This document shows positions 58,624-60,417 of a stretch of DNA of 64,000 bases, piece by piece (positions within the stretch are counted from its first letter, which is position 1; the number at the start of each line of letters is the position of its first letter). The notes beneath the pieces are model-generated. The model did not search any database. It saw only the letters and a program-made list of their open reading frames with translations, and was not told where the DNA came from. The translations under genes were made by a program, and so were the position numbers. The stretch spans positions 124,001 to 188,000 of the forward strand of contig NZ_FOXV01000006.1 of the NCBI RefSeq assembly GCF_900115815.1. The letters run 5' to 3'. The DNA is from Roseivivax halotolerans (GTDB lineage: Bacteria; Pseudomonadota; Alphaproteobacteria; Rhodobacterales; Rhodobacteraceae).

Positions 58624-59448
58624 TCAGTCACGGCTGTTTTTCCATGCTGTCGCGCGCCAGGGCGGCTCGAGCGTGGGCGCGGCGAAGAAATACCCCTGCA
58701 GGCAATCGATCCCGGCATCGCGGGCGAAAAGAGCGTCTTCAAGCGTTTCGATGCCTTCCGCGACGGTGAACAGATCGATCTCCCGTGCCATGGCGAGGAT
58801 CGCGCGCAGAAGCGATTGCCGGTCAGGATCGGCGCCGACGCCCCTGATGACGGTCCCGTGGACCTTTATGATGTCGAACGGAAACCGCGTCAGCATGCCC
58901 AGATCGCTGGGCCCCTGGCCGAAATTGTCGAGTGTGAAGGAAATGCCGGTCCTCGCGTATCGGTTCATGAAATCCCAAACGAGTTCGGGGATGCGCTGTA
59001 CCGAGGCATCGCGCAGCTCGAGGATCAACCGCTCTGCTATCGTTGGGTCGTCACCGAGGCCCTGCTCGAGAATACGCGCGTATTTTCTGTAGCCGACGGA
59101 CCGCGCCGATAGGTTGAGAGCGAGGCGGACGCCCGGATTGCGCGCCAGGATGCCGAGCCCCTCGCTCAGCACTACGCAATCGAGGGCACGGCCTGCCTCC
59201 TCCTCTTCTATGACGCGGATGAAATCGGCGGCGGGCAGGCTGCGGCCATGAGGATCCTGCACGCGGGCAAGCGCCTCGTGATAGGCGATGCGGTCCTGCG
59301 CGGCCGCCTGCACGACCGGCTGGAAGGCGAGCTTGACACGCCGGTGCCGGATCGCGTCCCGCGCCAGCGCAGGGGCGTCGCGCACCCGCGCCTGAACGGC
59401 GACGTCGAGCGCGTTTCGCGGCTGGTCGATATCAGTGAGCCGGGACAT
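58624..59448 (-). CDS. EAL-domain protein with degenerate active site
   Basis: A 274-residue protein that is one EAL (c-di-GMP phosphodiesterase) domain. The EAL motif (HEALAR) near residue 58, the NLS asparagine and AEGIET remain. However, the DDFGTG motif reads DNFGQG, so the second metal aspartate is Asn, and the KID motif reads KVH. Activity is therefore doubtful; it may bind c-di-GMP without cleaving it. ATG 59448 is preferred, ATG 59496 possible. Stands alone between phbA and rpsD. Confidence 0.85.
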   Translation of the reverse strand: MSRLTDIDQPRNALDVAVQARVRDAPALARDAIRHRRVKLAFQPVVQAAAQDRIAYHEALARVQDPHGRSLPAADFIRVIEEEEAGRALDCVVLSEGLGILARNPGVRLALNLSARSVGYRKYARILEQGLGDDPTIAERLILELRDASVQRIPELVWDFMNRYARTGISFTLDNFGQGPSDLGMLTRFPFDIIKVHGTVIRGVGADPDRQSLLRAILAMAREIDLFTVAEGIETLEDALFARDAGIDCLQGYFFAAPTLEPPWRATAWKNSRD

Positions 59449-59579
59449 GCGGCGGACTCCGAAGACTGCGGTGTCGCGCCAGATTTCACGCAACATCTTA
59501 CCGCGGCCCTAACGATACAGCGCGCCACGGCAGGAAAAGCCCGCTCAATGCGATTGAATTCGTTGGGGCACGGCATGTG

Positions 59580-59607
59580 TTGACTCACGGCCAAAGGCCG
59601 ATATAAC
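59580..59607 (+). promoter_or_regulatory. Promoter of rpsD
   Basis: TTGACT (59580-59585) and TATAAC (59602-59607) with a 16-base spacer form one of the best sigma70-type promoters in the window. The spacer contains a palindrome CGGCC-AAA-GGCCG (59588-59600). A start near 59614 would give a leader of about 125 bases. Confidence 0.75.
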
Positions 59608-59630
59608 CGCGCCTTCATTGGTGTTGGTGG

Positions 59631-59738
59631 CCCCCGCAAGGGGATGCCTGTCAGGGTGCAAAGCACCCAGAGGACAACGCCCTTCACAGATGCCGGGCCG
59701 ACCACCCGTCTGGCATCGCATCAGAAGGAGATCAGACG
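59631..59738 (+). promoter_or_regulatory. Structured rpsD leader RNA (candidate ribosomal-protein autoregulatory element)
   Basis: Three structures occur in a row: CCCC/GGGG closed by a GCAA (GNRA) tetraloop (59632-59643), GGGTGC/GCACCC with an AAA loop (59654-59668), and GATGCC/GGCATC (59689-59694 and 59712-59717), the last ending just before the AAGGAG ribosome site. A second GATGCC (59643-59648) could pair with the same GGCATC, giving two alternative folds. S4 is a known translational repressor of its own operon in E. coli and of rpsD in Bacillus, so autoregulation is plausible. I do not recognise a named RNA family. Confidence 0.6.
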
Positions 59739-60359
59739 GTGACCAAACGCACCTCTGCCAAGTACAAGCTCGACCGCCGGATGGGCGAAAACATCTGGGG
59801 TCGTCCGAAATCCCCGGTCAATCGCCGTGAATACGGCCCCGGCCAGCACGGCCAGCGCCGCAAGGGCAAGATGTCCGACTTCGGCCTTCAGCTTCGCGCC
59901 AAGCAGAAGCTCAAAGGCCATTACGGCGATCTGACAGAGAAGCAGTTCCGCCGCATCTTCGCCGAAGCCGAGCGTCAGCGCGGCGATACCGGCGAGATCC
60001 TCATCGGCCTTCTGGAGCGCCGCCTCGACGCGGTCGTCTACCGCGCGAAGTTCGTGGCGACCGTCTTTGCCGCGCGCCAGTTCGTGAACCACGGCCACGT
60101 CCTCGTGAACGGCCGCAAGGTGAACGTGCCGTCCTACCGCGTGAAGGAAGGTGACGTGATCGAGGTTCGCGAGAAGTCCAAGCAGCTCGCATCCGTGATC
60201 GAAGCCTCCCAGCTGCCCGAGCGCGACGTGCCCGATTACATCGAGGTCGACCACTCCAAGATGACGGCGACCTATCTGCGTCAGCCGGGCCTTTCGGACG
60301 TGCCGTTTGCCGTTCAGATGGAACCGAACCTCGTCATCGAATTCTACGCGCAGAACTGA
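59739..60359 (+). CDS. rpsD: 30S ribosomal protein S4
   Basis: Primary 16S rRNA-binding protein that starts assembly of the small-subunit body. The 206-residue protein starts [20 protein letters not shown] and has the S4 RNA-binding domain ([22 protein letters not shown], then [20 protein letters not shown]). Starts with GTG 59739, preceded by AAGGAGATCAGACG. Monocistronic, with its own promoter, leader and terminator. Confidence 0.98.
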
Positions 60360-60387: not shown

Positions 60388-60417
60388 AAGCCGCGTCCCG
60401 AGGGGCGCGGCTTTTTT
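60388..60417 (+). terminator. Intrinsic terminator of rpsD
   Basis: AAGCCGCG/CGCGGCTT stem (60388-60395 and 60406-60413) followed by TTTTTT, 28 bases after the stop codon. Confidence 0.9.

What the first reader, a model, noticed from the sequence alone, without database searches (positions are those of the whole stretch)
59631..59738. Structured leader with two competing stems before rpsD
A good promoter is followed by a GNRA-capped hairpin, a second hairpin, and a GATGCC/GGCATC stem right before the ribosome site. GATGCC appears twice (59643 and 59689), so two mutually exclusive folds are possible, the usual design of a translational switch. S4 regulates itself in other phyla through unrelated leaders.
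Basis: partly seen in the sequence, partly recalled or inferred. Interest (0 to 1): 0.55.

Follow-up and report, generated by a model that had tools for sequence, protein, structure and literature searches.

The report
Structured mRNA leader of rpsD
The messenger RNA for ribosomal protein S4 in this bacterium and its relatives begins with a conserved folded RNA whose last helix hides the ribosome-binding site, most likely so that surplus S4 can switch off its own production; such leaders are known in other bacteria, but this one looks undescribed.

Summary
The conserved part is a three-way junction at 59620-59681. P1 is GGUGUUG/CAACGCC, P2 is the GNRA hairpin, and P3 is a variable hairpin. A short fourth helix, P4 (CUUC/GAAG), pairs with the Shine-Dalgarno (SD) sequence. 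A covariance model finds the junction in 390 of 390 genomes searched in the order (140 genera). rpsD follows directly in 63 of 64 loci checked; the other is cut by a contig end. Relatives in other alphaproteobacterial families rewrite P1 yet keep it paired: 6 of 7 pairs change on both sides, though the middle pair is often open. P4 changes together with the SD. A promoter-like pair sits 11-13 nt before the junction in 78 of 140 leaders, the window included. No Rfam family matches the leader, and no alphaproteobacterial S4 leader turned up in the papers searched. Best reading: a new S4 autoregulatory leader acting on translation. S4 binding is inferred, not shown.

The parts
59580..59607 (+). 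promoter-like pair: -35 TTGACT (59580-59585), 16-nt spacer, -10 TATAAC (59602-59607); predicted transcription start about 59613-59616
   Evidence: Sequence. A -35/-10 pair scoring 8 or more of 12 was found in 121 of 140 leaders, 11-13 nt before the core in 78 and 30-46 nt before it in 43; none in 140 control windows 200-330 nt upstream. The start itself is inferred.
59620..59681 (+). conserved core: three-way junction of P1, P2 and P3
   Evidence: Covariance model R1 matches 390 of 390 genomes searched in the order; pair counts.
59620..59626 (+). P1 5' strand GGUGUUG
   Evidence: Pairs with 59675-59681; 6 of 7 pairs change on both sides across 56 distinct leaders of several families, the middle pair being unpaired in 26 of 56.
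59629..59648 (+). P2 hairpin with GCAA loop (59636-59639); its 3' end CC begins the conserved CCUGUC (59647-59652)
   Evidence: The GNRA loop is a feature of the Rhodobacterales form; the leaders of another order read have other P2 loops.
59651..59674 (+). P3: UC/GA next to the junction, one-sided internal loop (A, then AGAG on the other side), variable hairpin GGGUGC-AAA-GCACCC (59654-59668); AGAGGA at 59669-59674 belongs to the conserved core
   Evidence: All four outer P3 pairs change on both sides. UC/GA never varies, so it is untested.
59675..59681 (+). P1 3' strand CAACGCC
   Evidence: Variants CAGCACC, AAGCACC, GAACGCC and GGGCGCG go with changed 5' strands or keep the pairing by G-U.
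59681..59685 (+). P4 5' arm (C)CUUC, the anti-Shine-Dalgarno arm, directly 3' of P1
   Evidence: Pairs 1-4 form in 130, 130, 128 and 115 of 131 distinct leaders; pair 4 is C-G 98, U-A 15; pair 3 is U-A 120, C-G 6.
   Evidence: In the minimum-energy fold; complement of the own hexamer in 2 of 140 leaders.
59724..59730 (+). GAAGGAG: P4 3' arm (59724-59728) overlapping the Shine-Dalgarno sequence AAGGAG (59725-59730)
   Evidence: Sequence; predicted unpaired probability around the GGA of the SD is 0.26 in the whole leader and 0.74 in the tail alone, means over 138 leaders.
59739..60359 (+). rpsD, ribosomal protein S4, 206 aa, GTG start
   Evidence: NCBIfam NF003717 E 3.5e-80, TIGR01017 E 4.9e-71.
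60390..60417 (+). terminator-like GC-rich hairpin (with a bulged T) and run of six T after rpsD, which suggests a one-gene transcript
   Evidence: Read directly from the sequence. The tool's consensus scan did not list it.

Best explanation
The leader is a cis-acting RNA that lets ribosomal protein S4 repress its own translation. Shown by comparison: the mRNA carries a conserved three-way junction (P1, P2, P3) with a near-invariant core (GNGG...CCUGUC...AGGA), and directly 3' of P1 an anti-Shine-Dalgarno arm that pairs with the SD sequence of rpsD as helix P4. P4 has only 4-6 pairs in 113 of 131 leaders and often closes a long loop, so it should be marginal without help. The SD is then hidden and rpsD translation falls. 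When 16S rRNA draws S4 away, P4 opens and translation resumes. S4 as the ligand, and repression as the sign of the effect, are inferred from the exclusive link to rpsD and from the known self-regulation of S4 in other bacteria.
For: The covariance model matches 390 of 390 genomes searched in the order at E 1e-20 to 1.7e-7. In the 30 genomes looked at more closely, further matches were weak (E 0.0067 or worse), except a second copy on another contig of one assembly. rpsD lies directly downstream in 63 of 64 loci, the other being cut by a contig end. Compensatory changes: P1 6 of 7 pairs, P2 6 of 7, P3 4 of 6; covariation score 0.479 against 0.170 +- 0.011 in shuffles and at most 0.128 when slid. 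P4 changes together with the SD: 556 of 655 cells paired against 527 +- 5 when the arms are dealt among leaders (highest of 2000 deals 545). In other families both arms are rewritten, mostly as UUUCC/GGAAA and in two as UUCCU/AGGAA; an exact complement was found in 24 of 31 scored. The fixed promoter distance puts the junction at the start of the mRNA in 78 of 140. Outside the family, 8 of 8 class matches with E<1e-5 precede S4, and 9 of 9 weaker ones have no S4 in their locus. S4 self-regulation through unrelated leaders is experimentally confirmed in Gammaproteobacteria and Firmicutes (PMC7247131, section 10).
Against: No binding or expression data. No primary-sequence likeness to 16S rRNA beyond chance, so mimicry of the S4 site is not shown. 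When a typical 12-nt start region is added, thermodynamic folding displaces P1 (mean P1 probability 0.07, 0.5 or more in 4 of 138); without it the mean is 0.53 (0.5 or more in 78 of 138). P1 never varies within the 78 nearest leaders, so its support comes from divergent members; two divergent forms keep only 6 and 5 of 7 pairs. A4 was fitted to the structure it supports. The tree-based test of P4 has too few supported independent pairs (same way 3.3, opposite 0.0 of 8; median p 0.25). In the register used, P4 pair 4 is C-A in 10 of 131 leaders and P4 is 3 pairs or shorter in 18; the C-A cases I looked at pair in a register shifted by one. In 7 of 31 other-family leaders no exact complement of the 5-nt arm was found.
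Confidence: 0.77

Rival explanations
1. The leader is a translational switch of the kind drawn by the first reader: two GATGCC copies compete for one GGCATC, so that two exclusive folds exist.
For: Both copies and GGCATC are present in the window, and the downstream stem is in the minimum-energy fold.
Against: Only 2 of 140 leaders (the window and L040) carry a complement of their own hexamer in the tail. The stretch between P1 and the SD varies in length and sequence, and the hairpin nests inside P4 instead of competing with it.
Confidence: 0.02
2. A long-range switch: the 5' strand GUGUUGGUGGCC pairs either with CAACGCC (P1) or with the start codon and codons 2-4 (GGUGACCAAACGC), hiding the start codon.
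For: With a typical start region appended, P1 reaches 0.5 in only 4 of 138 folds, and the five folds printed pair the 5' strand with the region around the start. GTG starts in 127 of 142 and AAA at codon 3 in 133 of 142 against 30% elsewhere in rpsD. Codon 3 is AAG in the 4 Rhodobacterales leaders whose P1 5' strand reads GGCGUUC, GGCGUCC or GGCACCC and in 32 of 34 loci of other families.
Against: The pairing is no stronger than synonymous recodings of the same start region: mean z 0.15, median 70% of recodings at least as strong in 50 distinct cases. Leaders with GGUGUUU show no matching change of codon 2. Several leaders with standard P1 have starts that cannot form it (ATG ACA AAA AGA in 4).
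Confidence: 0.08
3. The leader binds a ligand other than S4 (a small molecule, another RNA-binding protein or a small RNA) and controls rpsD in response to it.
For: The near-invariant core is long, and no likeness to the 16S rRNA was found. No binding data exist.
Against: The strong matches checked sit only before rpsD, one strong copy per genome apart from one duplicated contig, and the gene seems to be transcribed alone in the window; a metabolite sensor would be expected before other genes too. Leaders of this kind usually bind a product of their own operon.
Confidence: 0.13

Closest known systems
S4 r-leaders of Bacteroidia, Clostridia, Flavobacteria and Fusobacteriales (Eckert and Weinberg 2020, PMC7247131; sections 5, 9, 10 and passages read)
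   Same: Structured 5' leaders consistently upstream of an S4 gene or operon, supported by covariation, S4 inferred as ligand.
   Different: None is listed for Alphaproteobacteria. The Bacteroidia and Flavobacteria motifs are hairpins; the Fusobacteria motif holds the GUAA sequence. The present RNA is a three-way junction with a CCUGUC...AGGA core and no conserved GUAA.
E. coli alpha-operon S4 site (pseudoknot over the rpsM start)
   Same: S4 represses translation of its own mRNA.
   Different: Different position (rpsM, first gene of the operon) and a pseudoknot that lets the 30S subunit bind but blocks initiation (PMC10931766, passages read). I identified no pseudoknot here (none was searched for by program), there is no Rfam match, and rpsD has its own promoter-like pair.
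Firmicutes (B. subtilis) rpsD leader
   Same: S4 leader under autogenous control (PMC7247131 section 10 read; the primary papers were seen only as references).
   Different: Carries the 16S-like GUAA according to PMC7247131; here the loop is GCAA or GCGA in all 78 leaders of A1 and is replaced in another order.
Alphaproteobacterial S15 (rpsO) leader (PMC4137082, passages read)
   Same: Same class and two-part design: a conserved helix thought to bind the protein, followed by a less conserved helix whose 3' side typically holds the ribosome-binding site.
   Different: Different gene and protein; its RNA was not compared with this one by alignment.

Membership tests
ribosomal protein leaders (kind) | conserved RNA secondary structure supported by compensatory changes | tested here: met
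ribosomal protein leaders (kind) | lies in the 5' leader of a ribosomal protein gene, consistently | tested here: met
   390 of 390 genomes searched in the order have the RNA; rpsD directly downstream in 63 of 64 loci; that it is transcribed rests on the promoter distance.
ribosomal protein leaders (kind) | bound by the encoded ribosomal protein, which lowers expression | not testable with these tools
   Needs binding and reporter experiments.
E. coli alpha-operon S4 site | match to the family's covariance model | tested here: not met
   No Rfam match over the window's leader at E up to 5, nor at E up to 0.5 over the leaders of the ten relatives with this RNA among the 20 loci. That Rfam holds this family is recalled, not checked.
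Firmicutes and Fusobacteria S4 leaders | conserved GUAA that imitates the S4 site of 16S rRNA | tested here: not met
   The loop is GCAA or GCGA in the 78 leaders of A1; GUAA was seen in L139 only among the divergent leaders printed. The longest word shared with the own 16S rRNA (8 nt) is within chance.
S4 leaders of Bacteroidia, Clostridia and Flavobacteria | same secondary structure and conserved letters | not tested
   Their alignments are in supplements that could not be opened; only the text was read. Whether Rfam 15 holds them was not checked.
any described RNA family in Rfam 15 | match at or near the gathering score | tested here: not met
   no match overlaps the leader; the few matches listed lie elsewhere in the stretches searched.

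The most novel reading that the evidence does not exclude
S4 leaders are ancestral in Alphaproteobacteria. The junction described here and the second leader type seen before rpsD in many other alphaproteobacterial families (motif B: UUCCNGA-GAAYGYGG...P2...CCCGUC...P3...CUA-UCNGGA-CAAC) are diverged forms of one S4-binding three-way junction, in which P1 was rewritten and shifted while the S4-contacting core near GYGG/CCYGUC stayed. The class would then hold a natural series showing how an RNA-protein contact is kept while the scaffold around it is rebuilt.
Probability: 0.3. Interest if true: 0.65.

Novelty: new member of a known kind. Interest (0 to 1): 0.5.

Why it matters
It fills a gap: S4 self-regulation is confirmed in Gammaproteobacteria and Firmicutes and S4 leaders are predicted in Bacteroidia, Flavobacteria, Clostridia and Fusobacteriales (PMC7247131), but no S4 leader for Alphaproteobacteria turned up in the papers searched. 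It adds another RNA scaffold to the list that S4 seems to read, in a form that can be tested at once in genetically tractable marine and photosynthetic bacteria. The near-invariant core marks a candidate S4 contact site, and the swap of the anti-Shine-Dalgarno arm between families gives natural compensatory mutants.

Tried and rejected
The long-range pairing of the 5' strand with the start codon region: looked attractive but is no stronger than synonymous recodings; the AAA at codon 3 and the GTG start stay unexplained. Mimicry of 16S rRNA in primary sequence: shared words of 7-8 nt are within chance (mononucleotide shuffles). A leader peptide starting at the ATG of GGGGATGCC: many relatives have no ATG there (AAC, ATT, AGG and others after GGGG do not give one); judged by eye, not counted. 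A MAFFT alignment of the core over several families failed on the 5' side (A3) and was not used for counts; A4, made with the covariance model, replaces it, and its pair counts lean towards the model's structure because it was fitted to it. RNAalifold prefers CCU/AGG (34-36 with 89-91) over the P2 base plus UC/GA; these letters never vary in A1, so the choice is open. The tree-based sign test for P4 has too few supported pairs.

Rows left out: L035 and L121 (no upstream DNA), L093 (my regular expression missed its AUGG junction; by eye it has the standard P1), and L082 (left out of the 143-locus set by oversight; L083 is the window itself). In the other-family set, L190 is truncated, and L195, L200, L203, L149 and L152 escaped the regular expression; L200, L203 and L152 were not scored (31 of 34 scored). 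Of 108 genomes outside the family with an S4 match, I read the upstream DNA of 88; 20 were not fetched. Of the 8 matching f174 genomes, 7 went into A4. The first motif B scan was too strict (13 of 88) and was replaced (30 of 88; 1 to 7 of 88 in 20 mononucleotide shuffles; at least 3 of the 30 look spurious). The class search with R3 misses two genomes of the own family that have the RNA, so its tally is a lower bound; genome searches of more than 40 genomes use stricter filters.

Full report
What is there. The window holds rpsD (59739-60359, S4) behind its own promoter-like pair. The nearest long upstream open reading frame that I take for a gene is on the other strand (58624-59496), so the 5' leader seems to belong to rpsD alone; a terminator-like hairpin follows the gene (60390-60417, read, not listed by the scan). 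The leader folds alone with z -2.0, which by itself proves little.

Comparison. The S4 protein brought in 80 loci from related genomes. 79 have upstream DNA, and 79 of 79 carry a near-identical core: GGUGUUG, G, U/C/A, GG, a CCCC-GCAA-GGGG type hairpin, CCUGUC, a hairpin of free sequence, GGA, CAACGCC, CUUC or a variant, a stretch of variable length, then in nearly all a GGAG-type SD and the start codon. Alignment A1 holds 78 distinct cores, the window's included. The covariance model R1 finds the RNA in 390 of 390 genomes searched in the order, 140 of 140 genera. Among 385 genomes of the class it found 5, all of the own family. In 30 genomes chosen for weak or multiple matches, all further matches were at E 0.0067 or worse, except a second copy on another contig of one assembly (G671). 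Of 64 loci fetched (one is the window's own), rpsD follows in 63 and a contig end cuts off the other.

Structure. Within the nearest 78 leaders P1 never varies, so the divergent members decide. Those found read GGUGUUG/CAGCACC, GGUGUUU/AAGCACC, GGUGUUU/AAGCAUC, GGUGUUU/AAGCGCC and GGCGUUC/GAACGCC, fully paired, and GGCGUCC/GGCCGCC and GGCACCC/AGGGGCC with 6 and 5 of 7 pairs. In 99 distinct leaders (A2), 13 of 20 pairs change on both sides. R2, built from A2, was run on 28 other-family rpsD loci and found relatives upstream of rpsD in 5 (L149, L152, L153, L154, L163; E 1e-7 to 0.006). In the order of one of them (G009), the RNA is visible by eye in the 28 new loci with enough upstream DNA (29 fetched, L190 truncated), and R2 matches 25 of 25 short stretches from it (E 0.005 or better in an 11-kb search). 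There P1 mostly reads CGCACCC/GGGCGCG (27 of 34 other-family loci). A further family (f174) matches in 8 genomes at E 0.0012-0.0021, upstream of S4 in the 2 checked; 2 matches of similar E in other classes (G964, G856) have no S4 near them. R2 over the 385 class genomes gave 10 matches: 5 of the own family, one more before S4 (G323, E 2.6e-4), and 4 weak ones (E 0.014-0.039) without S4 in the locus. A4 combines 24 Rhodobacterales, 25 f10, 7 f174 and 4 other leaders. In it P1 has 6 of 7 pairs with changes on both sides, 94.4% of cells pair, and the covariation score is 0.479 against 0.170 +- 0.011 shuffled and at most 0.128 slid. The middle P1 pair is broken in 26 of 56 rows: the other families mostly have an unpaired A or U there. 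A4 was fitted to the structure, so its counts lean that way. R3, built from A4, gives 8 matches with E below 1e-5 outside the own family in 337 class genomes, 8 of 8 before S4, and 9 weaker ones, 0 of 9 with S4 in the locus; it misses two own-family genomes. The letters shared by all families in A3 are C.GUC and AGGA (A3 is misaligned on its 5' side); GNGG is close to invariant by eye.

The helix on the ribosome site. Directly 3' of P1 lies an arm complementary to the SD. In 131 distinct Rhodobacterales tails, pairs 1 to 4 form in 130, 130, 128 and 115. The changes include U-A to C-G (6) at pair 3 and C-G to U-A (15) at pair 4; the helix is 4-6 pairs long in 113 and 3 or fewer in 18 in the register used. 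556 of 655 cells pair against 527 +- 5 when the 3' arms are dealt among leaders; this control ignores relatedness. On a tree of rpsD the two arms need at least 26 and 22 changes; in supported independent pairs they go the same way in 3.3 of 8 and the other way in none, which is not significant. In the other families the arm and the SD are both rewritten (UUUCC/GGAAA in most, UUCCU/AGGAA in two); an exact complement was found in 24 of 31 scored, 34 given. Predicted SD accessibility is 0.26 in whole leaders against 0.74 in the tail alone, means over 138.

Start of the RNA. A -35/-10 pair was found upstream of the core in 121 of 140 leaders: 11-13 nt before GGUGUUG in 78 and 30-46 nt before it in 43; in 140 control windows, none. 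In the window it is 12 nt. The mRNA therefore most likely begins at the junction or a few tens of bases before it. The control windows probably lie mostly in coding sequence, so the contrast may be partly one of composition.

The tail holds the complement of the leader's own hexamer in 2 of 140 leaders. It is not a conserved design. Another exclusive fold appears when first codons are added: with a typical 12-nt start region appended, P1 drops to a mean probability of 0.07 in 138 leaders, and the five folds printed pair the 5' strand with the region around the start. Codon 3 is AAA in 133 of 142 Rhodobacterales against 30% elsewhere in rpsD, and AAG in 32 of 34 loci of other families. In a crude set of 47 genes of the window AAA is not favoured near starts (2 of 10 Lys codons). 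But the pairing is no stronger than synonymous recodings and does not follow the GGUGUUU change of P1. I do not count it as a selected switch.

Mechanism. Shown by comparison: junction, P4, and one strong copy per genome before rpsD; the position at the mRNA start is inferred from promoters. Also inferred: S4 is the ligand, its binding favours P1 stacked on P4, the SD is hidden, and translation falls. S4 control of its own mRNA is confirmed in Gammaproteobacteria and Firmicutes (PMC7247131 sections 5, 9 and 10 read; PMC10931766 passages read). The alphaproteobacterial S15 leader has a similar two-part design (PMC4137082 passages read). No likeness to the 16S rRNA was found in primary sequence; a three-dimensional likeness is not excluded.

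Known or not. Rfam 15 gives no match over the window's leader at E up to 5, nor at E up to 0.5 over the leaders in 20 loci, ten of which carry this RNA. Seven full-text searches showed, in their listings and in the papers opened, no S4 leader of Alphaproteobacteria. Table 1 of PMC7247131 lists S4 leaders only for Bacteroidia, Clostridia, Flavobacteria and Fusobacteriales, and its text adds Gammaproteobacteria and Firmicutes. PMC2864571 and PMC11109978 do not mention rpsD in the main text, and the passages of PMC2704228 that name S4 or rpsD are general remarks or references. Two relevant papers are not held and supplements could not be opened, so novelty is probable, not proven.

Second leader type. 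Among 88 rpsD upstream regions of other families (88 of 108 available), 30 fit a different pattern (motif B) with covarying P1 such as UCCCGA/UCGGGA, UCCUGA/UCAGGA, UCCGGA/UCCGGA and UUCUGG/CCAGAA; shuffles give 1 to 7 of 88, and at least 3 of the 30 look spurious. R2 matches none of the 60 regions at E below 0.1 (one at 0.15). Whether the two types share an ancestor is open.

Noticed in passing
L162, L164, L168, L170-L173, L211-L213, L215, L219, L220, L224, L228, L231, L234, L243, L250, L260 (upstream of rpsD): A second, different conserved rpsD leader in many other alphaproteobacterial families: UUCCNGA-GAAYGYGG...CCCGYC...CUA-UCNGGA-CAAC, with a covarying closing helix (30 of 88 regions against 1-7 of 88 in shuffles; at least 3 of the 30 look spurious); no Rfam match over the leaders of the seven of these given.
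   Followed up: partly
window 59739-59750 and the same place in L001-L145: Codon 3 of rpsD (Lys) is AAA in 133 of 142 Rhodobacterales loci although AAG prevails elsewhere in the gene (70%), and the start codon is GTG in 127 of 142; the 34 loci of other families start with ATG and use AAG in 32. Pairing with the leader does not explain it.
   Followed up: partly
L002, L003, L019, L021, L037, L072, L123, L124, L128, between P1 and the Shine-Dalgarno sequence: Long insertions (tails of up to about 130 nt) sit inside the P4 loop, several with a shared palindrome-like stretch close to GGGAACCGGTTTTCGG; they look like a dispersed repeat tolerated there.
   Followed up: no
L005, L015, L016, L047, L049, L109, L111 and others, between the -10 box and the core: 43 of 121 leaders with a promoter-like pair have 30-46 nt instead of 11-13 nt between the -10 box and the core; the extra stretch often looks like a GC-rich hairpin (seen by eye).
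   Followed up: no
L062, second GGTGTTGG about 320 nt upstream of the leader's own: A second copy of the 8-base word GGTGTTGG; not examined further.
   Followed up: no
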